Shown piece after piece: positions 7,734-49,421 of a stretch of 64,000 bases of DNA. How positions within the stretch are numbered: the stretch's first letter is position 1; every line of letters starts with the position of its first letter. The notes beneath the pieces are model-generated. The model was not told the origin of the DNA, searched no databases, and was given only the letters and a program-made list of their open reading frames with translations. The position numbers and the translations under genes are program-made. The DNA is from Grammothele lineata (taxonomy: Eukaryota; Basidiomycota; Agaricomycetes; Polyporales; Polyporaceae), in assembly GCA_002150815.3 (NCBI GenBank), contig NDFF03000389.1, positions 1 through 64,000 of the forward strand. Reading direction: 5' to 3'.

Positions 7734-7822
7734 CTGGGCACACAAAACGACGATAGGAAGAATATCTGCGACAACTCTCCTGCGATCTTCGACGCTGCCA
7801 CTCATGTGGGTTGACGCCAGCG

Positions 7823-10556
7823 ATGGGAGGGGGTCACGCTAACGAGGAGATCAGGTCCAACACCATTCGTCACTTCTTCTATGAGAAGAACCTTTACACC
7901 GTAGTGAATTGGTCGCCCGTGGAATCGCTCCCTGGGTTGCTCATTGATAACCCGGAGCTGAATTTGAACCTGCGCGACATGCGCAAGGCTCTTTGGGCGG
8001 GCGCCACCGCCCCGGAGATGGGGTACATGCTGAAGAGGTACAGCTCAGAGTCGGCGTTTCTGGCCCGCTTGAGATCCCATGAGCGGGAGCTCCCAATAGT
8101 ACGAACGCAGCGGGGCTACACGCTTGTTCCAGAGATCATGAGAGCATGGGAGGAGATGGAAGACGGTTTCTCCTTCGTAGTCAAAGTCCTCTTCGAGTCT
8201 CAAAAGCGCAACCCGGAGGCACAAGACCTTCTCCCCCGCCGTTGGAACTTGCCAAGTGACTGCGGATACAAGCTGGCTCACCGGACGGCTTACGGGGCCA
8301 GAAAAGCCGCGCTGCGCGCAAGAGACGCGTGCGTGCTGCTGCTGGCTCGCTGCACGATGGCCATCGCCCTCTGTACGAGTGGAGAGGACGACTCCCGCGG
8401 CCCTCCTCTTTGGGTCAAGGTACTCGACGAGCACGACGTGCCAACACTCTGGGTCGACACATTGCGCGAATCCGTAGTCGCCGACCTCTCTGCGGGCCTT
8501 CGCGCTGGAGCGTTCGTCGAGCCGAGGGAAACGACGCAATGGATGCATCACGTGCCGTGCATGGTACGAGCCAACCTCCCTGTATACATCTCGTGGGGAC
8601 CCGACATCGGCGCAGTCGTGACCAAACATCCCTTCCTCGCCGCGTACGTGCCTTCGACGACCGCATTCATCCCTTGCGTGTATGAAGAGGACAGTCGTCC
8701 CAGAGCGCGTTTGTATTTCCGCTGGGATCGTGTGGGACTGCCGCCTACGGAAGGCTTTGCAGGTGGCGCCACGATATCATCCGTCTCTTCATACGGCTTC
8801 CCGACCCGCTTCGTAGATCAACTACTACCCGTGGACGCTCGGGACACGGCTCTGGCAGACGAGAAGAAGCCACATGGGCCGAGTCAACGCCCTGGTGAGA
8901 GTCGCGAAGAGTTCAAGGCCCGTCGGAAGCGAGAAGCGGACTCCCTCGCTACCCAGGCGACTCCGGAAGAATGGGCGAAACGTGAGGCTATGCAGAGGAA
9001 GGCTCTGTTTAGTGTGCGCCCTATCCGTCCCACAGTGGTCTATTTATGGAAGCAGGCGATCGACGTTGCTGGAGACTGGCCAGAAGAGTGGGCAAAGCTC
9101 GACTACCGATCACACGTGCCTTTCCCCGCGGTGGGGGAACTTTGGCCCAGGTATCAAAACGCGCTTAAGGTCTACGACCCTTGGAGAGATGAGTGGGATA
9201 TCTTTCCGGGACCGGAGGGTGGTCTGTCGGATCTAGACGACGAAGACGCTTGGGCTACGGGAGAAGGCGTTCCTGATGCGGTCTCCCTCCCGTGCGGTGA
9301 GGTACAGATCTCGAAATTCTTCCAATCCGATCTGTGCCAGTTCTACGAGGAGGAACAGGAGGGCGGATTTTGTCCGGCACTCGAGGCATTCTCCGACCTG
9401 TCGCGGTTCCGCTACGGACTTGTTCCTGTGGTGGTGGATGGGATGGGCATCGAGTACGAAAAGTACAGTGAGGCCACCGTGCGTAAGTGCTTTGGGCTCT
9501 TGGAGGAGGACATGGACGGGGCTGCTCGGGCAGCCGTAAAGCCGGCCAGCGGACTGCTTGCTGCACTTCTGGCGGACGCCTCGCACCCGGATGCCCCGGG
9601 TATGATTTGGGATCTTAATCCGGCCTGCGACCGTTTCATTTTGCTCGGGTTCGGAGAGTCCCCAATCTGTTTCTCGCGGCACGTGTTCAATGGCCAGGCA
9701 GTTTACCGCGTGCACTATCGGAACGACGTGGACTCCGAAGTGACCTGGGGCCTTTTTGTCAACGCAACTACAGCCCTGGAACTTAGCCGGCGCCGAGGTG
9801 TGGATACCGTTCAAGATGCAGCACACTTGTTAGTGGGGCGAGGCACGCGATTCTGTACGGCTTTCGTGCCGGAGCCAAGGGATCGCGCGCGCGTCAGCAC
9901 CGCGACGCCCATGCCGACTTATCTGGGCTGGAGACCAGCGGGGTTCCGACCAGATGGGAGGGAATATCAGGCATACGAGCAACGCGCGTACGAGCTCCTG
10001 TCTCAGCCTAGAGGGCGCGCTGCGCTGCTGCGCGGAGGTATTATCTGGCGATTGGCTGTGGAGATCCTCGGCGGAAGCAGCATCGACCGTGCAGAGGGAG
10101 GGCCATCTACGGACGTTTGGGAATGTGGGCACGAGCTGGTTGAACGGGGGTGCGACTCGTGGTACGAGGACGCGCTCTCGGACGACGAGCTTGATGTGAT
10201 CTGCGGTGTTTACAAGGTTTACACGGGTGAGTTCGGTTTGAAGAGCGCAACGCATAAGTTCTGACGCGATTACAGATGATTCGAAAAAACAAACCGCGGA
10301 TACATCGTGGTGGCCGAAGGCTAAGGTCTGGGAGTCGGGTTGTTACGACATAGGTCATTGGTCCTCGTTTGCGGAGCTGTGGTTCCAGAAGCGGCTCGAC
10401 AAGATAAGGTCGCATGAAGCGCTTCCGAAAACCGTCGTCGCTTGGAAGAATGACGTGAAGATCGCTCCTATCGCTAAGAGGGTGAGACTGGCAGTGGATG
10501 CAGCCAGTGAACACTTCATGGAGTCGCGAAAGGCCGTGTTGTGTGAGCAGAACTGA
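7823..10556 (+). CDS. Intact two-exon hypothetical protein, 894 aa
   Basis: Exon 1 is 7823-10226. A 49-nt intron (10227-10275, donor GTGAGT, branch CTGAC, acceptor TTACAG) then restores an open frame in exon 2 (10276-10556). Without the splice the protein would stop at 10264, so the second exon would be missed. Phase is consistent (1 base plus 2 bases), and exon 2 adds 93 residues beginning DDSKKQTADTSWWPK, including WFQKRL. I chose the ATG at 7823 because an in-frame stop lies upstream at 7754 and no earlier ATG is in frame. The protein is soluble-looking, rich in Trp and acidic residues, with no membrane segment. It resembles, from memory, a family of Agaricomycete hypothetical proteins that is greatly expanded and often found near transposons. 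No enzymatic motif was recognised. A decayed copy lies at 13.6-13.9 kb. Confidence 0.85.
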
Positions 10557-16419: not shown

Positions 16420-16670
16420 TATTGTGAGGTATGTCCTCACCCTTACCTCCTTCTCGGCCAAGCTCTCCTGAAGCTCGTACCCCACGTGTCCCTGTTCTCA
16501 GTTGTTCTCCCCGCGCGGCTCCTCGGCCGCGTCCGCGTGGATTCACAAGTTCCGCATGGAAGAGCGCAAAGGCAGCACCGTGTTCCCTGACTTTCAGCGT
16601 GCCACCGAAGTACGCTATGGCGTCGTATAGTTCAAGCTCGGGCACGAGACATGAAGGATTGTTTCGTTCG
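16420..16670 (-). CDS. Coding-like exon, hypothetical
   Basis: The minus-strand frame reading PELELYDAIAYFGGTLKVRE has normal protein character and ends at a good donor (GTAAGG at about 16431). No ATG in frame begins it, and the next exon with matching phase soon meets a stop, so it may be a remnant. I do not recognise the family. Confidence 0.25.
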
Positions 16671-17938
16671 TGGAGTCAAACATGGCGTTGAGAGTTGTTT
16701 CTACGTATGTCCCAGAGGATGATGCGCTCGATGGGCACCCCACAGATAAGCCCGACGAACCCATCTATGAACCCGCCGATGATGGGAGGTCGGGGAGGGA
16801 TAGCGAACACGTCGCAGATGCAACGGGTACGCTCTGCTTGTTACTTTGGGCGCGTCGTAGCGGGTTGAGCTAATGTATCGATGCCCTCGCGCGTGGACAG
16901 TGTGGCTAGATGACGGTATTTGCCCACAAGCCACCGCAGCGCAGCCGCAGCAGCTCGCTGGAGGCATAGGTGCTGAGGGTGAGCACGCCTGGGCGTTCAG
17001 CCCGCGCTCGCACGAAGGCATGATGGAGTGGTGGAATACGTGTGAGTTTTCCACGCGTGCTACGTCGTCGCCTTGGAGTAAATGCAACGCTTATGCCCCG
17101 CTACCGCCGCGGTGCATGCCACAGGTATGCCCTGGAGGACGGCGCAGAGGGGACCGAGTGCGAGATTTCAAGTGCTGAGGTGCAAGTAGAGGGGCGCGTG
17201 GACAACGATGTCTAGTTCATTGAGGTGCGCCGCGCGGCTGCAAGGGCGACAGCGTCGACGGCTCTAACGTAACGTAGATATTGGTAGTCCACTGATGTAT
17301 CCGTAGTCGCACCTGAATGGTATCCGTTTTCGCAAGCTGTGTATCCGCTCACGCATTTCGCTAATTGCTCTTATCAGTCTTACTTGCAGTGCTTACCAGC
17401 ACTGGCGTACTTACGCTTACGGGTGGCCTTACATAGTAGAATAAGGGCGAAGAATTATTTTTCGAGAAGTTCTGGTCGGCGGCGGGACCGGTAGACGACG
17501 ATGGGGAAACACAAGACACAGAGAGATAGGCGAGACATGATGCAGGATGCGAGAACATCCACAACCTTTCCAGTTGGGACATGGAACATGAATAGTTGAG
17601 GGCACATGCGCGGAAACATAGGATTTTACAAAGTGAGGGCGCCATGAAAGAAATTTGTAGAACTTCCTACAGGCGTTGAACATGCAAGCTACTAGGTGCC
17701 AAGGAGCGACAAAGTGTAAGTGGATATCAGAAAGGGGTGGAGGGACGAGGCTAAGGATGAAGAACCATATCTAACCACTATCCATGTACTTCCTCATAGT
17801 GGCACAGAATTTGGTACACAAACGCGATGAAAGGAGGTGAATAGTCCAAGAAAAGATGGTAATGAGTGAAATGCCAGATACAACGACATGCAAAGGGATT
17901 CAGCAAAGCTGGCATGTCCATATCGCAGATCACCTTCG
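16671..17938. other. No gene seen; probable flank of the first KDZ element
   Basis: This stretch lies beyond the 3' end of the minus-strand KDZ-linked gene. I searched by eye for a terminal inverted repeat matching the region after 26591 and did not find one. Confidence 0.4.
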
Positions 17939-20900
17939 CTAGTCTTTGCCAAGTGCTTTCCGCGAGGGTACTGGCGCACGGGCAGACCGCCGGGGAGCCT
18001 CTAGCACCGCTGGTGCGTCAGGTACCTTCCTAGTACGTCCACGACCACGGGTCCTGCTGCGACCCCTACCGGTACCCCCCCGACCACGACCTTGGGGAGA
18101 CGCATCTGAAAGATGCTCATCCACTGCTTTCTTGCCAGGATCTTCGTCTTCGGATGAAATGACGATGTTGTGAGAAGTGCCTCTGGGCTTGCTATCTGAC
18201 AGCTTGGGCGCACGGCGCTGGATTGGAGGTGGCTTTAACACAGCTTGTGTATCGGCGGTGTTGTGGGCATCACGCCCCTTGTCCGATGTGGGAAACCGAT
18301 CATCCAGCCCTTCCTGGAGGACCGTAGGGATCGGAGCGAGAATGACCTCTGCAGCTTTCCCCTTGCGTTTAGCAGAGTCTTCGGCGAGCGCAGAGATGGC
18401 GGCGCAGAGAGCGTCAGAAACGTGCCGGTCACATAAAGGACTGCTCTTCAAGACATTGGGGATTCTAGGTATCTGCTCATCAGTGGTCCTCAGGCGTTGG
18501 GACAATTGACAATCTCTAAAGAAGAGCCCTAGAACCAGCAGATATCTCTGGATTGTGGCCGCACTCGATGAAAGACACGGAGGGCGAGCAGCGAAGGCGG
18601 AGAAGGCTTCATGCAACGAAGGAATGGCGTGAACGTATTCTGGGAGGAATGGAGATGCATAGGACCATGTGCCCCAATCCCAGGGCAGTTCCATGGGAAA
18701 CGTCACCACCTCTTGTACCTGCAGTTTTGTCAGAATAAGATTCACAGCACCATGGCAGATTACTACACAAACCTTGCCCTGATAGCTATCAACCAGTTGA
18801 CGCCACAATGGGTCAGTACATAAAGCTTGCAAGTACTGCGCCCTTTCCTTGATCGGGATATCCAAAGGGGCGTGCCTAGGATTGGAGCGAGGCTTAGGAC
18901 GGGGGCGAACCTTGGGCAGCACCGCGGAGATAGACTGCGCGAGAGGAGGGACCTCCATGCACAGCTCTGACTCGTCGTCTCTGGCATCGTGGGGAAGAAT
19001 GGGGTCGCTATGATCGTGTCGGACGTAATGATGGTCGGTGCGAGATCCAGCGGCAGTCTCTCCAACAGGATTTTCGGCAGGGATAGGAAGGGTAGGGTCA
19101 CCAAGGGGATGGGGTGGATTAGGATCGGTGGAAAGGGGGACTATAGAACTTGTGCACTGGTCGTGCTCGCCACCCATGGGCTCGTCAGGGTTATCATAGA
19201 AATCTTCCCAGTCGGTAGCCAGATCCGAAGGTGCGTCACTCTCCAAGAAGTCATCTACCTCGTCATCCGGAATGTGATCCGCGTCCTCGTCCTCAGCATG
19301 TAAGGAGGCAGAATGGCTAGGAGAATCACTGCGGATATCATCATATGCGCTGGACGTCTCGTGTTCCTTTTGTGACGGAGCTTTCCCCCGAGCTTCGCCG
19401 TTCTCCGGAACCTTGTCCTGGCGAGCAGTCAGCGAACATTCATAGGGACAAGTACACGTCACGCACTGTAGGATCGTTCTGTTTCTTTGTCTCTGTGTGG
19501 CAGTTCTTGTCTGTAGCCGTTGCGTCACGTTTTGCATTAGGGGATTCCGGCATTCCACGATACAGCGCCTTGACCAGCTTCCCGCCGACGACTACATGAG
19601 ACAAGCGAAAGGGAGTTCCTTGCCCCCGAGAAGAGGGATGCTCCATCTCCATGATAGCAGCGAATATGCCTTCCAGTTGAAATCTTTTGTAACGAGACAG
19701 GTCAAGAAGCTTTGGCATATCTGGCCAGATGTGCGAGGAGAGGACGGAAGACTTGAAGGGTTCTATTTGAGCCCAGGGAATCCTATCGGTATAGCGGCCA
19801 CTCGCCATTGCTGATCGGAGACAAACATTATTACAACGTCGCCCGCAAGACAGATCATCGTCACTTACACCAGTGGATGCAAAGATATTCATGCAAGACA
19901 GCCATCAAGCGGGCCCCATTCATTGGCGCTCCGTTCTCTATGTTGGTCAAAATAGGAAAGCCGTCGTCGTCGTACGCAAACACGTAGGGCGGTAGGCCAG
20001 GTCGCGGAGCCGGTTTAACAGCTAACTTTGCATCGAGGTCTGGATACAAAAGAGTAGTAGAGCAATCGGCCCACGATTCCTTTAGGGGGTTCTCCCAATC
20101 GTCGGATTTGTAGAGTTGGCGGAACGTGAACGGAACCGACTTTTCATCATGCAATACCTCGGATAGATCCATACTGGCAGGAAGAATTTTGTTAGTAGGT
20201 TGTGTACCCTAAAGAGACGTGTAACTGACGTCCGCCAAAGAAGTTGGCCCTTTGACTCCCCCGGACATGTAGCAGCAATGAAAAGAGCCATCCCTGCTTG
20301 CCGATAAAACATCTTGATTATAGCAGCCATCCAGGCCGCGCTCCGCTTAGCGGCGATACTATCAGCTGATGTTAGAAGACTGGCGCCATTCAATCCTGAC
20401 AAACAGAGAATGCGTACATGGGCTTCCATTTCGCATCTGGACCGTCGTTGTTCCAGCGGATGGCCTCTGCCACCAGCTCGTCTTGCTCGACTGTGGTCAA
20501 CCGGCCGTACGCCACATTGCACGCTATGGTCCAATACGCGATAGGCTTCTTGACATCGCCCTCAGCGTGCGACATCTGTCGAGCGGCCTCGCTGATATCG
20601 TCCCTGTTTTTCACGCCGTAAACTGACTGTGCTGTCCACTCGCGACGTAGCTTGAAGGGAACTTGGGCTCGTTTCGTTTCCAAACGGTTGCCGAACCAAT
20701 GTTTCACTTTCTGGAATGCAATGAGAAGTTTGCACTCACATGAGAACAGTCTACATTACCGTGTAGATAACCTCATACGCAAATGGATCGTTGACATCCA
20801 GTTTCCGTCGCTGTAGAATGTCCACAACCGCCTCCTCGCGAAGCGCCGCACGAACAGCGGCATTTCCTCGCCGGAAAGCTGCTTTCTTAGTCTCAAGATA

Positions 20901-20969
20901 TGCAATATCTAAGTCGGTCAGGTGGGTGCGAAGACGAGGTTGAGCTGGAGGAGGGATGTGCGGGGGCAT
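17939..20969 (-). CDS. KDZ-associated protein with WF and HMG-like segment, 919 aa
   Basis: Six exons on the minus strand: 20969-20760, 20710-20418, 20358-20230, 20173-19869, 19810-19467 and 19417-17939. The five introns are 49-59 nt with donors GTAATG, GTACGC, GTCAGT, GTAAGT and GTGCGT; most have a CTAAC or CTGAC branch site, and phases match at every junction. Exon 2 carries KHWFGNR followed by a basic helix and a segment (about residues 85-170, including PIAYWTIACN, TTVEQDELVAEA and IRWNNDGP) that resembles a divergent HMG box. Exon 5 has the SGRYTDRIPWAQI motif, as in Agaricomycete hypothetical proteins found beside KDZ transposases. The last exon is acidic and disordered, then Gly-Arg-rich near the C-terminus (GRGRGGTGRGRSRTRGRGR), suggesting nucleic-acid binding. 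The role in transposition is inferred. Confidence 0.82.
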
Positions 20970-21098
20970 GTTGGATAAAGTGCGGTGAGATACGAAGGCG
21001 ATTTCTGCCGCATCACCGGCTATGGGAGGTGGTATTTGTAGATGTCATATTGGCGCTCGCGCCTCTCCTTGTTAGTCATCCATCTCCATCTCGCTGTC
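20970..21098. promoter_or_regulatory. Short divergent promoter region
   Basis: Only 129 bp separate the ATG of the minus-strand HMG-like gene (20969) from the ATG of the TET/JBP gene (21099). Both must take their core promoters from this interval. A short palindrome (GCGCTCGCGC, about 21053-21062) is present but no TATA box. Shared control of the two genes is an inference from spacing. Confidence 0.5.
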
Positions 21099-22385
21099 AT
21101 GAATCGCTTGAAGTTCAACGAACTCGTGGCATATTATCTTCATGATATTGTCAGCTGGATGTCCAATCCACAGCGAGAGCACTCATCTCCCCCACGACCT
21201 CCAACGCTCGTGTCTTCTCAACTGTCGGATGACTGTTGGCATGCAGCAGGAATTGTGGTGGAAGCACGTCGGAAAACTGGTACGAGGACAGATGATTGAT
21301 AGTCAGAAACACGCTAAAGTCACAAGTTCCAATGCAGTGGGATGCTGACCGTTATCGCGAGGCCCTCCGATCGCAGAAGGGATTCAACGATGCAGCAGAG
21401 ATAGCCCTCATGACCAATTTTCCACCCATCCGAGGCTTGGAAGAAGTTTTCCGTCGAGAGGGAAGCGGGGAAGCTCTTCCGTTGTGCGCTCATCCGTGCA
21501 TTGTGCGGGACATTCACGGCCGGATCCTGCTCTGGAGTCTCCCCGGGGTAGTACCGCAACACCGCCAGGTGAGTACTGTATGCACCCCCACCCTGCATGA
21601 CAACACCTGATAGTGCAAAGGCAAGCCTCATCCGGCTGCAACAAACTCACCTCCAGCCTCTGTGCGTTATCAAATCGTCCTCGGCCAAGCCGGATTCCCA
21701 TTCTTCCAGAGATTCCGCTGGATGGCGGATGGGGCCGAGATACTTCCATGAAGGCCGCCAGTATGGAAGCGGTCAGCTGTCTCTCTCTGTGGGGTGGTAT
21801 GCTCAGGGACATCACGTATGTCATTGATCGCCTGATAATTACGACATCGCTGACTGTCAATAGAATGTTGACAAAGCCCCCGCTCCCTCCGCATCACTCA
21901 ATGGTAAACCCAACGTGCAATTATGGCTTTCAGAAATGTCAGAATCCTGCGCATTTCTAGATGCGTTGCTCTATGTCACGCATCCAGAGTTATGGCGCGC
22001 TGGCTTTGACGTGGTTCGCAGGTTGAAGGAGCCAAGAGATCAAGATGAAGATACTGCACCGGCAACAGCCTCATGGCCGTCTGTCTTTTCCGCTATTCAT
22101 GCAATTGTCAACAGATCCACCATCTATCACAGGGACAACAACGCTCAACCACCATGGTACGATATGCTCCTTACCCTTGGATCGTACGGAGAGAGGGGAG
22201 TCATGTCGTTTCGAAACCTCGGGTTTTGCGTTCCTTATGACAGCGGATCTGTCGTTTTCCTTTGCTCTAGAATTGTGGTCCACGGCGTCCCTGATGTTGG
22301 TGGAGATCGGATGTGTCTGGCGTTTACGATGGATGATAAAGTATTCCAACATTACAGGTTGCTTAGTCCCACTTGGGCAGTGTAA
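21099..22385 (+). CDS. TET/JBP-family 2-oxoglutarate/Fe(II) dioxygenase, 379 aa
   Basis: Four exons: 21099-21279, 21327-21568, 21621-21815 and 21864-22385, with phase-consistent introns of 47-52 nt (the last has branch CTGAC). The double-stranded beta-helix core is in exon 4. The iron ligands appear as Y-H295-R-D297 and V-H346-G-V, and the 2-oxoglutarate-binding Arg is R355 in GGDRMCLAF. Flanking family motifs are present: FSAIHA(I)VNR before the HxD, PWYDMLLTLG, and before the core a HPCIVRDIHGRILLW segment and a QGH motif. All three metal ligands and the Arg are intact, so activity is plausible. Family members oxidise 5-methylpyrimidines in nucleic acid. Upstream of a KDZ transposase is the classic setting for basidiomycete copies. 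Length is short for the family, but complete for this subgroup as far as I recall. Confidence 0.88.
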
Positions 22386-22451
22386 CATTTTACTACCTGC
22401 GAATGACATGTCTAGTGAACTTTACCGTCTTTTCACACCGTCGGTCCTAGG

Positions 22452-22458
22452 TATATAA
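22452..22458 (+). promoter_or_regulatory. TATA box of the first KDZ transposase
   Basis: TATATAA lies 129 bp before the ATG at 22587 and 67 bp after the TET/JBP stop. This position fits a transcription start near 22485 and a pyrimidine-rich leader (TTTCCTCTTCACCGCCTCAC follows). The transposase therefore probably has its own promoter. Confidence 0.55.
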
Positions 22459-22586
22459 GAGAAGTCCTGCGCGCCCATTTCCTCTTCACCGCCTCACTCT
22501 TTCATACAGATCTCCTCATCAGCCTGCAGCGGATTTCCACTTCGCCGTTTCGTCTTTACCTCACTTCTGTATCCCAAGCTACAGTT

Positions 22587-25500
22587 ATGGTTCACAGTTA
22601 CCGTCGCAAACGTGGCTTTGAACTTATCCAGGACGTTGCCGCTGTCGAGGGCGTCCGGAAGAAGGACCGTCGAGGCTGGAAAATCGTTGAACGTGTCACA
22701 AAGGTTCGCATTCTCGGGGCGCGGAAGCGTGCGGAACGACTAGCTGCGGCTGCTGCTGCACGCAAGTCTCCTGTCTTAGAGCCCGTCCCTCTCCCAGCCG
22801 TAATCGGTTCCGACGCATTTCATCCGGGAGTCGAGGTCGATCCCGAGCACGTCGTGCCCCCGCGAATGGTGCGTTCGCCTCTTCCGAGTCTGAGAGCGAG
22901 ATGCTAACGCAAGCTAGACCGCGGGCGATCATCAGAGGGAGTTTTTGCAGAGGCGAAATGGCTATCTCCAGCGCATTCTGGAGAGCGAAGCACCCCCACC
23001 GGATCTCAAGCCTTCTTGCCATGAGAATCACATCCTCCACTGGCGCTGCCTTTCTTGTCACGAACGACCTACATTTTGTTCTGCTTGTCTTAGGGTTGCA
23101 CACGTACGACACCCCTTCCACCGCGTTCAAGCGTGGACCGGCGCATTTTTCAGCGACGCCTGGCTTCGCCAGTCTGGTCTCACCGTTCATCTCGGCCACG
23201 GCGGCGATATTTGCAAGACCGTTCAGATGATGGCTGACGCGGCTCCAGCTTGGATGCGAAAAGAAGAAGAGGACGAGGTCGTGGAAGAAGAAGAGGCGTT
23301 CCTGGATCTGAACGTTGACTGGGAGGATGACGATATGGTCGAGGACGAAGAGGTGAGCAATCGTGAAAGGTATCGTAGGTCATGTCGTCGCCCTAAATGG
23401 AACACCCAGACTCTTTCAGAATCCGGAGAGGATGAATCGGGCCCAAATCCTGGCGCACATAACACCACGCGTGCTCCTGACTACCTCGATGTACGTCTCA
23501 TCTCCCGGACCGTATCAGCATGACGGCTTATGCCATGAACAGTACGCTGAAGCAGCAGACTTCCCTCGATTTGGAGAAGACTCCTTACATCCCTCATTTC
23601 CACGTTCGTCGAGCACTTCTGCCGGTTCGCGGATGCTGGTGATCATTCATTCCAACGGCATCCACGAGCTTCCCGTGGTATTTTGCAAGTGTCCCAATGC
23701 GCTCCCTGAAGACGAGCAACTCGTTGCTGCCGGATACTATCCGGCTACTGTAAAGAGGCCTAGGACGGCGTTCACACAGATTCTACTTGACGATTTTCTC
23801 CGGACCAATCGCGTTTGCAAGACTGCCGTGCGCGCCTTCTACGCACAGCTCCGACGGGCAACCAATTCCGCTTTCCCACATCTTGTTCCGGTACGTCCTA
23901 CTGCTCAATGGTGGCTCAGCAGTACAGCTCATCCGCTGATATACGAATTAGGACAAATACAAGGAATTCCTCAGAGTCACTCGGCAATGGCGTAATATGA
24001 AGCTACGCAAGTGGGCAGGTCTCGGTCATGAGGACCATCCAGTGAAACCGGGAGAATTAGCAGTTCAATGCCCAGCTTGCCCTCATCCGGGTGTCAATAT
24101 TCCGGATGACTGGCAGAATGACCCAGAGAAGTAGGTCACCCTCCTTTCCATGCAGTGCTAGCTAATCAGTTGGTGCAAACGCAGGTGGCACTATGGCGTT
24201 TCCGTCGTAATGGATGGCAACTTCACGGCACAACACCGACATACGAAGAACCCAGGAGACGACGTTGCCCTCGCAGATGGGCATCTTTTTATGGTAGAGG
24301 AAGCCCCATACCGACATCATCTTGAAACGGCCAAGCGTTTCAAAGAGGTGGGTGCATTCATACGGTTTGCAAAACGAGCATGACAGTCGTTGACGGGCCC
24401 TTCTATAACAGCGGCTGACGTGCAACGAACACCGCGCCGTCCTGGCGGAGGCAAAGAAAAATACTAGCCTCGAATCTACAGGTATCGGGGCTGCGGCGTG
24501 CTCGCGACACGGATTCTTCATCGGCCATTCCGCTGTGGACTTTCAAAAAGGGGAAGGGTGAGTTAAACAGTCCTGTGCATGGATTGGTAGCTGATTCAAA
24601 GCGTTGATATCGTTCTACAGACAGAAGAACATGGACTGGGCCCTCCATTGGGTTTTCGTCTGGATTAACGGAATTACCTGGCTCCTCGTGATGTACGACA
24701 TTATGTGCCAGTATTCCGTCAACGTCAAGCGCCGGTTTACAGAGAGTCCTGCTTTGGAATGGCCATCAACCCTCATCACATTCCTCGTCGGCATAGGTCA
24801 ATTCCACATTCATGGACATCAGCCCACCTGCTTCTCTCGATATTCTGTGAACTTCATTCAAGGGGCAGGTAATCAAGATGGGGAAATCCTTGAGACGCTT
24901 TGGAAGCCCCTAAACCCGGCATCAAGCAGCGCTCGTGGGATGACGTTGTTCCACCGCCGCGAGGTCATTGATGACCATATGAACCATTCCAACTGGACGA
25001 AGCTCACTCGAATTGGTCGGTGTTTTTGGATCTTCTCAGCCAATCTTCTGCCGGTTACTAATGCATCTGACAGCGTTTACCCTCAAAGTGAAATGGATCC
25101 GGGTTTTCCAGTTCTTAGGACCTGCTCGCTTAGCGTTTCAACGCCAGGACGCCGCAGCAGGTAACAACGCCGCAACGTGGCGCTACATGGCAGAGCGTGC
25201 AAACTCCTTGCGAACATCGCAAGTCGACGTCCTTGACATATACGACGTCGATAGAAGCCCGCGTATGTCCATCATCTGTACGCCCGCGGCTGTGCCGAGA
25301 TTCACTTCTGGCAGTGCCCACTCTGAAGAGCATCCAAGCGGATCTGATGAAGAAGGAGACCACCGAATACAGCACGAGCCTCGGGCGTGTGGGGTGGATT
25401 GCATCAGGCCTGAAGATCGAGGAGAAAAAGTATGTGTCCATTTCCATGACGTATTGTATTCAGCATTGCTGATAGCACATGTGCACAGGCTTCACGTTGC

Positions 25501-26591
25501 CCGTCTGGCCCGTCAGATTAAGAAGACATCCGGAGACACACAGAGGCTGACGCTCGTTCAGGAGAGACAACGCCTCATAGATTCGATCGCCAAGTTCCAT
25601 CTCATTGCTAGGAAATTCATCCCAGAGGCCAGCGAAGTTCCTCTTGACGTCGGTGACCTTGGGGCAGAATGGGACGTCGCAGATGACCAAGATCCAGAGA
25701 CAGCCCCGGGATCCTCGACTCCTGACTCAGCAAAACCTGTGGGAACAGTCCACAGCCGCCTGCACCACATCCTCGATGTCAGCCACGACACCCCAGAACG
25801 CCACGGCATCATGCTTCCGTCGACGCTCGGCTACGAGTATCTCCGCGCCCATAACCTTGAGGTCGCCGCGAAGGAGCAGCGGGACCTCGTTGTGGGCATG
25901 ATGAACGAGGCTTTGCAAAAGGTTCGGATAGGCATAGGCTACAAATCACTGCTCTATCGCACCAAAGTGCGCAACGCCACCGGCACACGCGCACGCCTCC
26001 GGAGCTTTGATGAGGTACACGCCGCAGAAGAAGGAATCCGACGACACGTCAGGACGTACATGATGGGACGCGGTATGCTCTATAATCTCTTTGATCCTGT
26101 TGACAAAGCAACTGTCAAAGAACGCGACGCGTTGCTCCTCAAATATCCTGCGATCGTCCAGAAGGATTTAAAGGCTGAGACGGCGCTTTTGGAGTCCTTC
26201 ATGGCTGGGCAGAGGCATAAGCATGCTAGTTGGATCTGGCATTTTGAGGACAAAATAGGTGGAGATGCAAAACAGTTCCTGGAAAACAGTACGTTTTGCG
26301 CTATCAACAGGATGCCCTGGCTGACACACAGTCCCAGCCCGCCGCAGCTTGTGGCTTCGCTCCTACGCACGCTGGTGTAGGTGGGAGGAGGAGCAGGAGC
26401 TAGTCATGCGGGAGATGAAATGGACGGTGAAGTATTTTTCTGTTATGGCGGATAAGTGGAAAGCTCGGGCCGACCTTCCCGCTCATCCGGGACACAAAGC
26501 CTACGCGCTACGGCTGACGGCTATGTGGTCCGGGCTTGCGCATCATGCCCAAGGCGTCTTCGATCAGGTCCTGGCAGTCTATCAGGTGTAA
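22587..26591 (+). CDS. KDZ transposase with CxC2 zinc cluster, about 1147 aa
   Basis: Eleven exons: 22587-22868, 22918-23490, 23543-23890, 23952-24130, 24185-24347, 24412-24557, 24621-25015, 25074-25262, 25315-25429, 25489-26288 and 26338-26591. All phases match; an extra in-frame 57-nt intron at 23353-23409 is optional. Near the N-terminus is the cysteine cluster (C128, C138, C141, C148, C151, then H156/H162) in LHWRCLSCHERPTFCSACL, followed by the conserved HPFHRVQAWTGAFF. The RNase H-fold core shows MDGNF (D471), CNEHRAV, CSRHGFF, VDFQKGE, NMDW (D569), MYDIMCQY (D590), GQFHIHGH, GAGNQDGEILETLW and DDHMNHSNW, in the order known for Kyakuja-Dileera-Zisupton transposases. The first Arg of the usual QKGER reads Gly here. 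The C-terminus has the coiled RWEEEQELVMREM segment. No frame break was found, so the enzyme may be functional. Confidence 0.9.
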
Positions 26592-27586
26592 CTTCTCGGA
26601 TATCTTCCTGCATGTGCATCGAGAACAGTTACAGTTGTAATTATACGCCCATTATTCTCCTTCAAGGGGGTCGCGGGATGTCAGCACACTGCAAGCGACT
26701 CAGGCCGATTTGTGTCGGAACAGCCTCTTACCTTAGACACGCTTACCTCAGATACTTGGAAATCATGACATCTTCTTGCAAAGTTGCTTCCTCCATCGAC
26801 ATCGATGATGCCTCTGGGGACGGTGATTCCTGCCATGTATCCTCGCGCTCCATCGTCAGCATGTACCATTGTGGGAGCGATATTGGAGCCCAGCCTCGAT
26901 CAAGCCTGAAGCTGCTTCGTTCGTCCGGCACTAACTCGACCCTTGCGGGGTCGTTTGACAGCGGGGAGATCCTCGATCGCGACGGCGGAGCGCATGGCGG
27001 GCACTGGCCTACAGGAGGATGGTCTCGATGCAGGTAACGGAGGGAAGAAGGTGCAGAAGATGCGCTTCTCGGGTGCTGGGCGAAAGCGACTCGCAGCACA
27101 ACCAAAGTACGACAGCGTGAAAGTCGTCGACGAGGGGATCAGCTGAGAGATCGCGCAGAACTTAGAAGGCGTTGCAATACAAAGAACTAACAGAATGATG
27201 GTCGTAATGGTTCGAGAACGTGCTCGGTGCCAATCGCACGGAAAGCGAACTGTGCCAGTCGACCCGCGTGCGCACGCGTATCCAGAGCAACACGAGCACC
27301 CCGCACGCGCCACTCGATGCCTGTCCGTCGGCAAGTCACCTCTTCCGAGCTTGCCTCGATCCCCATCATGTCTCGCGAGCTCAAAACCACTGCAAACACA
27401 TTCGCCGTAGCAGACCTCAGCAGCACGAAGGAGAAGCGCCTTGGACGCTCATATCATGTCCTGATTGTGGTGGTACAAGCTGGGCCTTGGAGACATCCCA
27501 GGCTCCTCGCCATCTCCTCTGTCACGCAGGCTGACCGCGACGCTGTTGACGTTTGGTCTCACCTCCGGGGACACGAGCGTAGTAAC
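26592..27586. other. No firm gene; downstream flank of the KDZ element
   Basis: A plus-strand frame at 26943-27146 ends with a basic, protein-like tail (KKVQKMRFSGAGRKRL) and may be a remnant or terminal exon of something unrecognised. No terminal repeat of the KDZ element was identified. Confidence 0.35.
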
Positions 27587-27587
27587 A

Positions 27588-29340
27588 CTGATCAGGAAAA
27601 AAAGGCTGTGCTCGAGGGCGCTCGAGAGTCTCGAGAGCAGCGCGAGCCGCCGAGCTTGGTACCCCAGTCTCGAGCCCCCTGCCACCGCTCGGGGCTGCTC
27701 GAGAGCGCTCGACGACTGCTCGACGAGTACGGCCGAGCAACCAAACAGACCGGGCTATTCTTTCGATCCCCTCCCAGACTCACAAAACACACAGAACAAG
27801 TTACTTCAACACGATATATTGATAACTACGTAGCATACATGTACAGTACAGGGTGTTCTCGTAAGGTACAATGGGGCGGCGCAGCATGCCGCTCGCAGGG
27901 CCCTTCCATTTGCCTCCCTTCTCCCTCGAAAGCCACGATCACACGCCCCCCGCATCACCCGCGCATGCATCCGGCGACCTGGAAGCTCCGCGCTCGTTCG
28001 CTGCAACGGCGTTGGCTACGGCAGCTTGCACCGCGTCTGTGTCGCAACGAACTCGCGGTACCCTGGCGCTGACGTTATTCCACGGGCCCGTGCGGGCGAA
28101 GACTGTGCGCGCGCAGACGAACGGCGATGTTGTACTCGCAGTTGCGACGGTCTTGATGGTAGCGTGTACGTCTGGGGGGTGGCGGCAGGCCTGGGGAGGT
28201 GGGTGGGGCATGAGTACGGGCATGTGGGGTTCAGATCAGCATGAGACGGAGTGGGTGCTGCCGGCCATACAGGACTTACCAGTCAACGCGCCCGATCTCG
28301 CCGGAGACTTCCTGGCTCCGATGTACGATATACGACTCACCCACCCTCCACCATAGCGTGCCACGTTGCACGCTGCCATCAATGGCGCAGACCCTTTGGG
28401 TAAGACTTAGTAGGATACGTGGTGACACAGGGCAGACTATGACATACCGAGTGACAAGCACCGTGTGTCACGAGGAGTGTCGTAGGGACGGGAGCGAAAA
28501 TGTGAGTTGTGCATTTTGGGGATGAGGCTGGCAGGCGGCGGAGCTGGCTGGTCTTCGCTGCTTACAGAAGACGTAGATAAAGAGGGGAATAAGATATGAG
28601 CGGGAGGGCGTTGTAGGGCGAAAGAGCATGAAGTTGCATACCAACGATGGCCTCCAAATCGCGGCATATACGAGGTGCGCAGGGTACGTATTTTGTATGC
28701 GGAAGGGAAGGTATGTCCCGTACCAGATGTGAATGACAATGTTCTTTTGGAGGCCGTCAGAAAGCATTGTGAGAGGTTTTGAGGATCTTGGCCTTGGGGC
28801 GAGCGCGAGAGGATGGGAGACTTGACGGAAGTAGACTCAGTATACAAAGCTAGTAGAGCAGTAGGAAGACCCCTCGCAAGACCTAGACCAGAGCGGCAAC
28901 AGGGTACAGAACCAAGGGGAGGAGCAAGACTCTCGAGACATGGGACTAGAGCGAGGCGTGGCGAGAGGGAATCTCAACCAACAGTGCGTGAAGGTGCCAG
29001 CGAGACGATGAGACGCGGCGCCCACTTGAGGGCAAGCCGCGCGAGGTTCAGGGCAGGTTGCGCGAGACTTCACGAATCGCGTCACGGCACCGGCGCTTCG
29101 CAAGTGCCTGTGCCGTACAGGCCAAAACGTCGTCTGACGGATCGATTCGCGGCTCTGAACAGTACAAGGAGGTAGTAATATGACGTACAAAGGGATGGCA
29201 CACAATCTGAACATGCTGCCTGAAGCTACCTCGGCTCGGCATGCTCGAGTCTGCTCGCGCGTGCTCGAGAGCTGTGCTGGCGTCTCGGGAGTCTCGAGAG
29301 CCGCTGCGTCTCTCGAGCAAATGGTTTTTCCTGATTGGCA
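27588..29340. mobile_element. Possible element bounded by CTCGAG-rich inverted sequence
   Basis: ATCAGGAAAAA at 27590-27600, followed by TGCTCGAG and a cluster of CTCGAG motifs (to about 27730), is mirrored on the other side: CTCGAG cluster (29244-29317), then TTTTTCCTGAT at 29325-29335. The inverted relation extends over roughly 60 bp with mismatches. The 1.7 kb between them has no convincing gene. No target duplication was found, so this may also be two inverted copies of one short repeat. Confidence 0.4.
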
Positions 29341-29688
29341 GGTGATTCGGATACCGACTTCCAGAGCGCACAAGTACTCGAGTTCCCGCGGGGGCGGGAG
29401 CCATGAGTCCTTCGCCTGCAGCGCCGACGCCGACATTCAGGATGAATCGCAGGGGATGCCGACTGCGCTCACACACCTCAATGACTTTGGGCCACGCATG
29501 GCAGGGCGGCCAACGACGAGCTGCATGTATTGTCGGCCGTCGCCAAAGGCCGCGAGCGCAACTTCAACACAAACGGGACAAAGACAAACGTAAGTACATA
29601 TTACATACCGACCTCGATTGGGCGCTTATTTCTCGCGACCCCCTTACTTTCCTCCGTCATCCACGCGTCCTCTGCCTGCTCGAACACG

Positions 29689-30466
29689 ATGTCCATTCGC
29701 CAGATGCATCTTCCGGAGGAATCGCAAAAGGCCCTCATAGCTGCACGATTAGAGGTGTTTGCAATCAGCGCTCGCATTGTTGCGGCTTTACAGTGTCTAC
29801 CGAATCCTGCTCGAGACATCGATCTTGCTCGCTGGGGATGCGGGCTGAGCCGCGAGATTGTGAGTTAAATCTTTTGCTTCGTCTGGGGGGGAGGAAAGTT
29901 GAAATAAGTATCCTACAAGTGGGCCGCCGTTCAAGCCATGGGAATGGCGACAGCCGCATCTATGACTGGGGCTCCAGACCTTGACCCGACGAAAGAAGAT
30001 TCGCCCACGACTGCACCAATTGCAATCCTATTATCGAAAACACGCTGTGTCAGTCGTTCTTTCGTTGTACGCTTGGGGCCCGGAGACCTCGACCCGGTTA
30101 CGATTCAGAGAATTATTCATTCGGTTCCGCCTGAAGAGTTGAGGAGCTTGTCCCACTTTCTTGAGGTCGACAATTGGTGGACATGGCCTGATTGCGGACC
30201 TCACAACTGCCCTGTTCCTCCATGGTGGATGAACCCACAAGATGTGCTGGTAAGGGAGGATCTTCTGGTACAGCCTAATGTCGAATCATAACTTCTTACA
30301 GGATGTCCCTGTCCCGGCTCACTCATCAGACTTCCAGGAGGTGCATAAACGCGTCTTCGGCGCGGGGGAGCAGACCAATACCGCAGCGCAGCACTTGGAG
30401 GGAAGCATGCAGACGATTGAGACATTGATTCGCACGTTGGAAAGGAGGTCTCTTCAATCAGTGTAA
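29689..30466 (+). CDS. Small three-exon hypothetical protein, 221 aa
   Basis: Exons 29689-29859, 29920-30249 and 30302-30466 join in phase 0 through introns of 60 and 52 nt (donors GTGAGT and GTAAGG; acceptors ACAAG and TTACAG). The protein has a helical N-terminal part (LPEESQKALIAARLEVFA), a central Trp- and Pro-rich segment (DNWWTWPDCGPHNCPVPPWW, residues about 140-160) and a C-terminal helix (EGSMQTIETLIRTLERR). The start is uncertain: an upstream exon ending at a GTAAGT donor near 29589 may exist, in which case 29704 begins an internal exon. I recognise no family. Confidence 0.6.
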
Positions 30467-32250
30467 TCATACCTGCTTGCAACAAGCTACGAGGACTTTT
30501 TCCCGGACTATGGCAGCGATGCAACTAAATTCAGACAATATGTCCTTAATCTCAATCTCGTATTACGCAGTCGATGCAGTCACATTAGTGAGGACCCACA
30601 AAAAGGATATAACTTAAGGACCTTGTGATGCGATGCGATGCGAGAGGAAGTGGCAAATTAGAGATAGCTTAGAGGCTTTAGTGATGTATGACATCAGCGC
30701 AGGATCGAATTTTGAGTAGAGACGGGGTGTAGGGCAACTTAGTCACAGGGATAGGTAACCAGAGGATCATGACGGACGAGGTTATCTAACGACGCACCTC
30801 AGCATCGCGATCGAGCTGTCCTGAAATCTGGCGCTACCCCTCAAGCCTATGGTAGCCTGACTGTGGTGTCTTGTTGCTGGGCAGGGCCCTCATAAGTAAA
30901 TCCGTAGCAGCGGCGAATAGGCGAGACGTCGAAAGCTGTCTACGTTGTTGTAAGTCGATACCCCTAGTACGCGCGTATTACCAGTCCAACGTTCAACCCG
31001 TGAGAGGACCATCACAGCTTGACTGTTGTTCTGTCGGAGGAGCATCGGGTGAGCAATCGAGCGGAAGACCTCACTGAGACCTCACGTATGATATGGAGTG
31101 GCGGCGGGGTCACTGATAAATTTCCTCTTTCGCGAGACGCAGCACCACGGGACTTTGTCGTCGAGAACGTCGCGAGTTCTTCTTGAGTCCCGGGAGACCG
31201 CTCCGCTGCAAGTGGAGAAGGCATTCCCCGTAATCAGAAGTCAAGTGTGCAGCTTGCTTAGGGTGTAGAGGAAGGCGGTGGGATAGTACAGTTGGGATGT
31301 CGGACTTGAGCCCCAAAGACTAGCTTGTTGAGCTAAACGACGTTCCAAAGTAAGATCCCGCACGTTGTGGCCACAAGAAGAGCCTTTAAGGCGAATAACC
31401 TAGGATTTTATATAGTCAATGCGCATAGCAAACCATGTTACACCGTGTTAGGCTGCGGCCGCTCTCGCGAGGAGTCCCGCAGACAGGGCACATTCAATAT
31501 GACATCTAGCGGTAGACATAGGCGGAGTGTCAGACGTGTATGTAGGCGGAGGGGGGACAGACTATACTCCATGTGTTCCGAACTTGAACATCTATTCGAG
31601 AGTTGCATGGTCCACGGGTGGCTCGAGGGGCAACAGAAGGACGTTAAGAGGTTGTTGAACATTTTCGACGTGGACCGAGTATGATACGACGAGTCGAGGA
31701 GAAGGTGAGAACAGACAAAAAGAAAGAGTATGCCAGAAGGCGCGGGCGACAAGAGGTTGGCACGGAGTAACACAAGTCCTGAGGTTGTCTACGGCGAAGG
31801 ATAGAGCTCTCGAGTCGTGAACACGGTCTGAGCGTCGGCGAGGAAATTGGACCCATCGGATGGCGGGCGGCTCCGATGCGGGGAGCCGTCTCCGGGCCGG
31901 CCGGCGGTGTTGAAAGTTCCTCACTACCACCGTCACTACTGCTCCAGCTTCTCGACATCCTTTTTCTGCGTAATGCCCAACGAGTGCATCTCCTTCCTAG
32001 GCCAGGCTCAGTCTCTTCAAGCTGTCTTGCTCTCTCCTTGCATATTCAGTACAGGCTGAGCGTGTCGTCTACAAGAGCACACCCGAGTGCGGTATGTCCT
32101 CAGTGAAGGAGGTAACGCGCTAGAAAATTGTGGTAGTGTCAGTATGTCATGACACCACTTCTGATCTAGATTAACTCCCAGTTCGTCATGGTCCTAGTCG
32201 GATGGGAAGCTCTCTGAGACGGGCCTTGTTCGATCGAAGTTGGGCGATCC
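30467..32250. other. No supported gene
   Basis: Short overlapping frames only. A small direct reiteration of GATGC occurs near 30625-30645. Confidence 0.4.
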
Positions 32251-33205: not shown

Positions 33206-33901
33206 CTTCCAATCTACGGCGTTAGTTGATGAATGCGACATCTGATGTGTATGCTCAAGGAACGGCGGGCGCATGGCGTTACTCGGCGGTAAGAACAGTT
33301 TCGCTGTCGTACATTCAAGTAGGCGCAGCGCCTGGGTGACAGGCCTGACGATTCGTCCGTTGAGTACCGGGTGTCTTATTTGTGCTTCCTGTCGAAGCGA
33401 TATAGGATTTTGACTAGTGTCCCACTGTTGAAAGTGGAATATTTGCGGCGTCTCGGCATGCAAACTCCGCGAATTCTGAGCTGTGCTGTGTGATAGACTG
33501 AGATATAATGGATCGCCGTTGAACGCTGAACGTTGGCGGTGGTGGGGCGAGTATAAGCAAGGACTCGGCCAGGGCAAGACTAGACAAGACTGCGGCCCAA
33601 CTCAGGCGGCCTGACTCAAGTCCGCACCTCAGGCAAGGTCGCAGTACTTGCCATCAAGCGCCGGCGCTGGTTGGGGCGACGCGTGGCGTGCGCTCTTCTC
33701 TCCGCACCATTCGACTCCGTTTCTCCACGTATTGGCCTGGGTGGCCGTTGCTCTCTTCACGCCCTGTCAACGCCCGCCGTACTCCAAGTATTCACCGCGC
33801 CATGGATCAGAGGGTGGAATGGAATATCAGGTATGTGTTTCTAGTGCTTTACTATCCCCTACCTTCATCATATCGTCCACTCTACCGCTACGTCTTCGTT
33901 T

Positions 33902-34434
33902 GGGCCCTGGCCGGGTACGCAGGCTGTCGAGTGTGTTCTCGCACTCCGATACCAGCATCGCCGCGTCGTTCATGGGGCCCTAGCCGGGTACGCCGTGTCG
34001 TCGAGTGTGCCCTGCACACTCCAATACCAGCATCGCCGCGCTGTTCTTCATTGGGGCCCTGGCCGGGTACGCAGGCTGTCGAGTGTGTTCTCGCACTCCG
34101 ATACCAGCATCGCCGCGTCGTTCATGGGGCCCTAGCCGGGTACGCCGTGTCGTCGAGTGTGCCCTGCACACTCCGACACCAGCATCGCCGCGCTGTTCTT
34201 CATTGGGGCCCTGGCCGGGTACGCAGGCTGTCGAGTGTGTTCTCGCACTCCGATACCAGCATCGCCGCGTCGTTCATGGGGCCCTAGCCGGGTACGCCGT
34301 GTCGTCGAGCGTGCCCTGCACATTCCGATACCAGCATCGCCGCGCTGTTCTTCGTTGAGCCCTGGCCGGGTACACTACGTCGTCGAGTATGCTCTGCATA
34401 TTGGCACTAGCATCTCCGTGCCATCGTTAAGGGC
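33902..34434 (+). repeat. Higher-order tandem repeat, 152-bp dimer of 73- and 79-bp units
   Basis: Seven units start at 33902, 33975, 34054, 34127, 34206, 34279 and 34357. Odd units share GTACGCAGGCTGTCGAGTGT, even units share GTACGCCGTGTCGTCGAG, and all contain GGGCCCTRGCCGGGTA and ACCAGCATCGCCGCG. The AB dimer repeats at exactly 152 bp. The last unit is diverged. The dimers are nearly identical, so the array is young. Open frames through it exist only because stops are absent from the unit. Confidence 0.92.
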
Positions 34435-49000: not shown

Positions 49001-49421
49001 GAGTAGACACTGAAAGCCTTCCCTACCGTACTTGCATCCAATGTTATCTATCCGTCGGGAACCGCATCAATTGGCCGTAAAGGTATTTCAATGCACTTGA
49101 TCAACTTATGAGCACTCATTTGAACTCTGGAGACAAGAGCACGTGTGGATCAGAAGAAGGCTCAAGGAAGGGGCCAATACCGCAAAACGCCGACGACGAT
49201 TCAACTTGAACTCAACACGCGTCTTCAACGCGGCAGCTCTGAGCGTCGAGGCGTTGCGGGAGTCCAGGGTCCCTTCGCGCGCGCACGGCCCAACTTTGTC
49301 AAACGCGAGTCAGTCGACGATCCTTCAACCACAAGGTGAGCACGCCTTTCTCCTTCCTCCTGCCTCACGGCAAAGCGGAGGGCCCTCTCATCGACCCCCT
49401 ATAAACCCAGTGTCCCCGGAC

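What the first reader, a model, noticed from the sequence alone, without database searches (positions are those of the whole stretch)
17939..26591. Apparently intact KDZ transposon carrying a TET/JBP dioxygenase and an HMG-like protein
All three genes are open through 18 proposed introns with matching phase, the dioxygenase keeps H295, D297, H346 and R355, and the transposase keeps its zinc cluster and core Asp residues. Such an element could be mobile and could at the same time change DNA methylation marks at or near its insertion sites. Gene content agrees with the published basidiomycete KDZ-TET/JBP association.
Basis: partly seen in the sequence, partly recalled or inferred. Interest (0 to 1): 0.92.

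Follow-up and report, generated by a model that had tools for sequence, protein, structure and literature searches.

The report
Nested four-gene KDZ–TET transposon
This stretch of a likely mushroom-type fungal genome carries a transposon-like element whose four open genes include a predicted transposase and a DNA-demethylase-like enzyme with changed residues at positions that read the base in a known relative; two other mobile elements have landed inside it, and because a sister copy keeps the other three genes but has a dead demethylase gene, the enzyme is likely helpful rather than essential to such elements.

Summary
21099-22385(+) is TET/JBP (Tet_JBP E 4.7e-17; nearest solved relative CcTet); 22587-26591(+) is a KDZ transposase with a CxC2 zinc cluster; 20969-17939(-) is open and conserved, but no HMG relationship could be shown. 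The unit is larger than reported and not intact: a fourth gene (29689-30466) follows, cut off in the window by a ~3 kb insert that holds a second insert. The fourth gene was found at 5 of 5 loci where KDZ sits within 10 kb of TET or its remains, and at none of the other 39 KDZ loci. No near-identical copy was found (C217, 69-74%), nor CA..TG ends with an exact 7-bp duplication, so recent mobility is not supported. In C217 the TET gene is dead while the other three stay constrained, which argues that TET is not essential. The window TET and its C152 sister keep the Fe/2-oxoglutarate residues but differ from 7 other AG-like copies at base-contact positions (Ala; Thr/Ile; Asp/Gln). Known kind (TET+ KDZ elements; Kojima 2025, Iyer 2014 recalled); the variant features are the fourth gene, the altered pocket and the TET-dead sister.

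The parts
17939..20969 (-). Third gene, 6 exons: 20969-20760, 20710-20418, 20358-20230, 20173-19869, 19810-19467, 19417-17939; 919 aa; conserved N-terminal part, acidic middle, Arg/Gly-rich tail; function unknown, HMG relationship not shown
   Evidence: Splice model open; relatives at C217, C152, C154; no Pfam hit
21099..22385 (+). TET/JBP dioxygenase gene, 4 exons: 21099-21279, 21327-21568, 21621-21815, 21864-22385; 379 aa
   Evidence: Tet_JBP E 4.7e-17; CcTet E ~9e-27; residue table
22587..26591 (+). KDZ transposase gene, 12 exons: 22587-22868, 22918-23352, 23410-23490, 23543-23890, 23952-24130, 24185-24347, 24412-24557, 24621-25015, 25074-25262, 25315-25429, 25489-26288, 26338-26591; 1128 aa
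   Evidence: Model checked against C217/C152; PF18758 E 1.7e-48, CxC2 E 3e-22
26663..29646 (.). Insert A, with 12-base inverted ends AAGGGGGTCGCG/CGCGACCCCCTT; not part of the KDZ unit, absent from C217; a copy in C19 has an 8-bp duplication (hAT-like, inferred)
   Evidence: C217 lacks it; C19 copy matches both ends
27588..29338 (.). Insert B inside insert A; borders good to a few bases; member of a dispersed family
   Evidence: Window 27587 and 29339 are neighbours in the C19 copy of insert A; family matches at C219, C41, C231 and others
29689..30466 (+).
   Evidence: Model; same place 3' of KDZ in C217, C152, C176, C172, C230; family alignment

Best explanation
Window 17939-30466 is the gene-bearing part of what is likely an old KDZ-family DNA transposon, with four open genes (a predicted transposase, a TET/JBP dioxygenase, a third gene on the opposite strand and a small fourth gene); the transposase would have moved the unit, and the dioxygenase likely oxidises a modified base in DNA so that the element would escape silencing. 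Shown: gene content, open frames, codon-position constraint on the genes, the two nested insertions, no near-identical copy found. Shown: in the sister locus C217 the TET gene has decayed while the other three genes stayed constrained. Inferred from this: TET is an accessory that helps, or can be supplied in trans, rather than a part needed for transposition. Inferred: since the Fe and 2-oxoglutarate residues are kept but base-contact positions differ from CcTet, this sub-lineage likely still oxidises a base but reads it differently. Inferred: the fourth gene is a partner specific to TET-bearing KDZ elements. The window copy is probably no longer mobile as one unit.
For: Profiles and nearest solved structure. 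The fourth gene was found in 5 of 5 KDZ loci with TET or its remains within 10 kb and in 0 of the other 39 KDZ loci, with three query proteins. C217-only changes by codon position: TET 88:82:60, KDZ 57:38:165, fourth gene 18:9:37, third gene N-part 36:29:54; TET differs from each (p 6e-16, 5e-6, 0.001). C217 TET: 7 stops in 349 compared codons; KDZ 0 in 1120, fourth gene 0 in 220, third gene N-part 0 in 424. Window-only changes in TET 26:16:49, p 8e-5 against flat. Pocket table with the mutants of PMC11040006 (passages). Nested inserts.
Against: No ends or 7-bp duplication found for the window, C217 or C230, and no more than chance for C152 and C172, so that it moved as one unit is not shown. 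CpG content does not follow TET: window genes 0.96, TET-dead C217 1.03, 7 TET-free KDZ loci 1.00-1.19, so protection from methylation by this TET has no support here. Gene order differs between lineages, and C2 has TET and the fourth gene without KDZ nearby. C152 third and fourth genes give 3 apparent stops each in the alignment, which I take for alignment slippage, but the C152 third gene may be damaged. No expression data.
Confidence: 0.68

Rival explanations
1. One reading: an intact, still mobile KDZ-TET transposon that changes methylation marks at its insertion sites.
For: All four genes are open; Fe/2-oxoglutarate residues kept.
Against: No near-identical copy found, two nested inserts, no ends found, pocket residues changed.
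Confidence: 0.12
2. A former transposon now kept by the host: the genes are held for a host function and no longer move.
For: One copy, window-lineage constraint in TET, KDZ, the fourth gene and the N-part of the third gene, normal CpG content.
Against: The same gene set recurs at C152, C172 and C230; the counts of change cover time as a mobile element too; the unit is broken by inserts.
Confidence: 0.12
3. The window TET is losing its enzyme function: the changed base-contact residues mark decay and not a new preference.
For: In CcTet R393H drastically reduces activity (PMC11040006, passage); the C217 sister gene is already dead.
Against: C152 has an open TET gene with changes at the same positions, and window-only changes keep a third-position bias (p 8e-5 against flat).
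Confidence: 0.2

Closest known systems
TET+ Kyakuja DNA transposons of Agaricomycetes (Kojima 2025, PMC12730594; text parts 1-5 of 7 and figure legends read)
   Same: A KDZ-family transposase gene together with a CcTet-like TET/JBP gene.
   Different: The CA..TG ends and 7-bp duplications described there were not found here. Ala stands where Gly or Ser is reported. A fourth gene is present; I saw no mention of it in the parts read. Placement in Kyakuja rather than Zisupton was not tested.
CcTet of Coprinopsis cinerea (PDB 7vpn, 7w5p, 8jkk; PMC11040006, passages seen)
   Same: Best match in the PDB (E ~9e-27); Trp204, Arg205, Arg321, Thr323, His326, Asp328, Asp337, Tyr361, His376 and Arg385 are kept.
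   Different: Gly331 to Ala300, Phe391 to Thr361, Arg393 to Asp363, Ser330 to Asn299.
KDZ elements with an HMG-like protein (Iyer et al. 2014, recalled; paper not held)
   Same: Transposase, TET/JBP and a further gene beside them.
   Different: No HMG relationship could be shown for the third gene. Whether the fourth gene is among their 'additional proteins' could not be checked.

Membership tests
KDZ transposase family (PF18758) | Full KDZ domain above Pfam's cut-off | tested here: met
   165.7 bits against a cut-off of 26.6, profile 3-217 of 217
KDZ transposase family (PF18758) | Associated cysteine cluster (CxC) | tested here: met
   CxC2 79.3 bits against a cut-off of 27
KDZ transposase family (PF18758) | Conserved acidic residues of the RNase H-like core (motif reading partly recalled) | tested here: met
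   D452 (MDGNFTAQH) and D571 (YDIMCQY) have counterparts in C217, C152, C172 and C230; that they are the catalytic pair is inferred
Complete Kyakuja transposon (Kojima 2025) | 5'-CA..TG-3' ends flanked by a 7-bp target duplication | tested here: not met
   0 exact pairs over 16500-17938 x 30467-32200, 0.65 expected by chance; 3 pairs with one mismatch over a narrower range, about 4 expected by my arithmetic. An old copy may have lost the duplication, so I do not file it as a complete Kyakuja element
Complete Kyakuja transposon (Kojima 2025) | Transposase groups with Kyakuja in a tree | not tested
   No named reference set was at hand
TET/JBP dioxygenase (PF12851) | Domain above cut-off with HxD, distal His and Arg | tested here: met
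   62.1 bits against 34.9; H295, D297, H346, R355
AG-type TET of Kyakuja elements (Kojima 2025) | Asp at CcTet 337 | tested here: met
   D306
AG-type TET of Kyakuja elements (Kojima 2025) | Gly or Ser at CcTet 331 (reported, not a strict definition) | tested here: not met
   A300 in the window, Ala in C152; among 7 other copies Gly 5, Ser 1, Asn 1
HMG-box proteins (third gene) | Detectable sequence relationship to an HMG box | tested here: not met
   No Pfam hit; no HMG chain among 3 PDB profile hits up to E 10; hhalign probability 0.6-0.7%, and 6 of 40 column-shuffled controls scored higher
hAT superfamily (insert A) | 8-bp target duplication with short inverted ends | tested here: met
   GCGAGAGC on both sides of the C19 copy; window flanks agree at 5 of 8 bases. 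That this marks hAT is recalled; other groups, Zisupton among them, also make 8-bp duplications
hAT superfamily (insert A) | hAT transposase | not tested
   No search was made for one

The most novel reading that the evidence does not exclude
A sub-lineage of transposon-borne TET/JBP enzymes has kept its oxidising core but rebuilt the pocket that reads the base, and works with a tryptophan-rich fourth protein tied to TET-bearing KDZ elements: an optional anti-silencing module with a new base preference, added to a transposon that can live without it.
Probability: 0.27. Interest if true: 0.75.

Novelty: new variant of a known kind. Interest (0 to 1): 0.52.

Why it matters
Why fungal transposons carry TET enzymes is open; Kojima 2025 (PMC12730594) says their function is not experimentally validated. 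This genome offers a natural comparison: related elements in one nucleus, one with an open TET gene and one whose TET has decayed while its transposase, third and fourth genes stayed constrained. That makes the question 'does the element need TET?' directly testable. The changed base-contact residues point to a specific enzyme to assay, and the fourth gene is a candidate partner.

Tried and rejected
HMG assignment of the third gene was tested by Pfam, PDB profile and profile-profile comparison and is not supported. A faint match to the Lhx9 homeobox (E 0.78) is not significant.

An 8-bp duplication at C172 16330/27640 looked like element ends (0.42 expected by chance) and was rejected because homology between C172 and C194 runs further left. 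The exact 7-bp window pair 17710/26873 has its right end inside insert A and was rejected.

CpG depletion as a sign of methylation was tried: 7 TET-free KDZ loci and the TET-dead C217 are as CpG-rich as the window unit, so it does not support protection by TET. Those 7 are among the eight best-scoring of 71 KDZ matches, so well-kept copies are over-represented.

In-frame stops in the C152 alignments of the fourth gene (3 in 214 codons) and third gene N-part (3 in 418) were put down to alignment slippage at 56-58% identity; the spliced C152 fourth gene is open (219 aa). The C152 third gene changes frame further on and may be damaged.

A first KDZ model (9 exons up to 26591) read through introns and was replaced by the 12-exon model; its Pfam result was repeated. 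The C152 and C217 KDZ models have wrongly read exons in places and were used only to find the window introns; codon counts come from alignments.

Profile search with the fourth gene gave no solved relative below E 0.6. A first placing of C230 had one piece reversed and was redone.
Full report
SETTING. The window is 64 kb of contig C239 in an unnamed 41.8 Mb, 252-contig genome.

THE THREE GENES. A splice-site model gives TET 21099-22385 (4 exons, 379 aa), the third gene 20969-17939 on the minus strand (6 exons, 919 aa) and KDZ from 22587. Comparison with relatives moved the KDZ model to 12 exons and 1128 aa, all open, ending at 26591. Pfam places TET in Tet_JBP (E 4.7e-17) and KDZ in PF18758 (E 1.7e-48, profile 3-217 of 217) with a CxC2 cluster (E 3e-22). 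The best solved relative of TET is CcTet (E ~9e-27). The third protein has no Pfam hit at E up to 1 and no match at E 0.001 among the 7994 candidates scored in the protein collection. Its N-terminal part with three relatives (C217, C152, C154) gave no HMG signal by PDB profile or Pfam. Profile comparison with three HMG boxes gave 0.6-0.7% probability, and 6 of 40 column-shuffled controls scored higher. The HMG label therefore rests on the literature for such elements (recalled), not on this sequence.

A FOURTH GENE AND TWO NESTED INSERTIONS. DNA comparison with the closest relative, C217, matches the window in order through the three genes and again at 29677-30446, only 125 bases beyond the previous match in C217 but 3.1 kb beyond it in the window. 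That block is a 221-aa gene in three exons. The extra DNA at 26663-29646 is an insert: a copy in C19 has ends CAAGGGGGTCGCG and CGCGACCCCCTTG between two copies of GCGAGAGC; the window flanks agree at 5 of 8 bases. An 8-bp duplication suggests hAT (recalled; no transposase was sought). Window positions 27587 and 29339 are neighbours in the C19 copy, so 27588-29338 is a second insert, of a family with partial matches in other contigs.

WHERE THE FOURTH GENE OCCURS. The window protein gave 12 matches in 6 contigs: C239, C217, C152, C176, C172 and C230, in each case 3' of KDZ sequence on the same strand (for the window itself). Queries from C172 and C2 added C2, where it lies beside TET, the nearest KDZ match on that contig being about 97 kb away. 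C230 has two copies in tandem. The 71 KDZ matches merge into 44 loci under a 5 kb rule. Five of them lie within 10 kb of TET or its remains (C239, C217, C152, C172, C230), and all 5 carry the fourth gene; it was detected at none of the other 39. Limits: the searches score only the best candidates, distant forms may be missed, the loci are related, and TET remains too worn for the Tet_JBP profile were looked for only in C217. The Fisher value (9e-7) is thus only indicative. The family shares a WW-W-P...P-WW signature, has no Pfam match in any of 8 members scanned, and its best PDB profile match is E 0.6. In the protein collection 4 proteins matched at E up to 0.01 among 7999 scored candidates, all from contigs of about 1 kb or less; one, P0003, repeats part of the C172 protein letter for letter. 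Gene order is third(-), TET(+), KDZ(+), fourth(+) in C239, C217 and C152, but TET, third, KDZ, fourth in C172 and C230, with the third gene opposite to the rest (the third-gene matches there are weak, E 1e-3 and 9e-7).

A NATURAL TET KNOCK-OUT. With C152 as the comparison, changes found only in C217 fall on codon positions 1:2:3 as 88:82:60 in TET, 57:38:165 in KDZ, 18:9:37 in the fourth gene and 36:29:54 in the N-part of the third gene. TET differs from KDZ (p 6e-16), the fourth gene (5e-6) and the third gene (0.001). C217 TET has 7 in-frame stops in 349 compared codons and many frame-breaking gaps; the Tet_JBP profile does not find it and its HxD is gone in the frames shown. KDZ (1120 codons), the fourth gene (220) and the third gene N-part (424) have no stops, and all their gaps are multiples of three. 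In the window lineage the same measure is 26:16:49 for TET, so there the gene is constrained. The simplest reading is that the C217 element lost TET early and went on without it, or was helped by another TET in the same nucleus.

THE TET POCKET. Aligned to CcTet, the window keeps W204, R205, R321, T323, H326, D328, D337, Y361, H376 and R385. At base-contact positions it has Ala for Gly331, Thr for Phe391 and Asp for Arg393; C152 has Ala, Ile and Gln. The other 7 AG-like copies compared have Phe at 391 (7 of 7), Arg or Lys at 393 (4 and 3 of 7), and at 331 Gly (5), Ser (1) or Asn (1). In CcTet, Gly331 makes room for 6mA, changes at Asp337 abolish 5mC oxidation, Phe391 stacks on 5mC, and R393H drastically reduces activity, while F391Y does little (PMC11040006, passages). 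Kojima reports Gly or Ser at 331 in Kyakuja (PMC12730594; figures not held). Iron and cofactor chemistry should therefore work, while base preference is likely changed. This is a prediction; decay is the rival.

MOBILITY AND MECHANISM. No near-identical copy was found: the long DNA matches to C217 are 69-74% and those to C152 68%; the DNA search skips very common words and scores only the best candidates. No CA..TG ends with an exact 7-bp duplication were found for the window (0, against 0.65 by chance), C217 or C230; C152 (1, 0.54 expected) and C172 (3, 1.7 expected) are at chance level. Repeats matching the left flank stop at 17474-17480, so the left end probably lies between there and 17938. 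CpG ratios are near 1 in the window genes (0.96), in TET-dead C217 (1.03) and in 7 TET-free KDZ loci (1.00-1.19), but 0.10 and 0.26 in the two loci examined of another Tet_JBP-like gene class and 0.43 in the C176 remnant. Methylation-driven decay thus probably acts in this genome, which also has cytosine methyltransferase-like matches in three contigs, but it does not track TET presence in KDZ elements.

WHAT IS KNOWN. TET+ KDZ elements are published (PMC12730594, text parts 1-5 of 7 and figure legends read; Iyer et al. 2014 recalled, not held). Kojima proposes escape from methylation-based silencing and says the function is not experimentally validated. I saw no mention of a fourth gene in the parts read, and the titles and abstract starts listed by searches for KDZ, Zisupton, Kyakuja/Dileera and TET/JBP/HMG terms show none. 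Iyer's 'additional proteins' (recalled) may include it, so I do not claim that it is unpublished.

VERDICT. It is of a known kind, with three features worth following: the fourth gene, the altered pocket and the TET-dead sister.

Noticed in passing
window 43652-45669, minus strand: A second, broken KDZ element of another family: partial KDZ domain (100-211 of 217, E 2.9e-23) at 43652-44314 and a CxC2 cluster (E 1.4e-33) at 44902-45669.
   Followed up: partly
C201, C109, C247, C195, C99, C10, C90, C115 (L017, L019-L025): Eight weaker Tet_JBP matches of a different class (GHRD...HFN). The two examined, C201 and C109, sit in DNA of GC 0.40-0.41 with CpG ratio 0.10 and 0.26, a sign of methylation-driven mutation.
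   Followed up: partly
L015 (C164) and L016 (C69): Two AG-like TET copies whose surroundings are 93-97% alike over most of 3.4 kb, the closest pair seen; no KDZ match on C164 and none within 30 kb on C69. What moved them was not worked out.
   Followed up: no
L014 (C2:193677-197069): TET followed by a fourth-gene relative on the same strand with no KDZ match nearby, and Cys in its H-x-D motif (HCD), Asn at CcTet 331.
   Followed up: partly
L011 (C194:16596-20015) against C172: Mosaic similarity: about 75% across the TET region but 91% over the 1.3 kb that follow, as if by exchange between copies.
   Followed up: no
L045 (C176:2445-5729): Truncated KDZ and fourth-gene remnant with GC 0.43 and CpG ratio 0.43, unlike the better kept copies.
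   Followed up: partly
window 33893-34398: Tandem array with a 152-base unit, 3.2 copies, 96% alike, made of two half-units of about 75 bases.
   Followed up: no
window 7757-10264, 49101-50621, 59823-61358: Long open frames (835, 506 and 511 aa, stop to stop) without a Pfam match at E up to 0.01.
   Followed up: no
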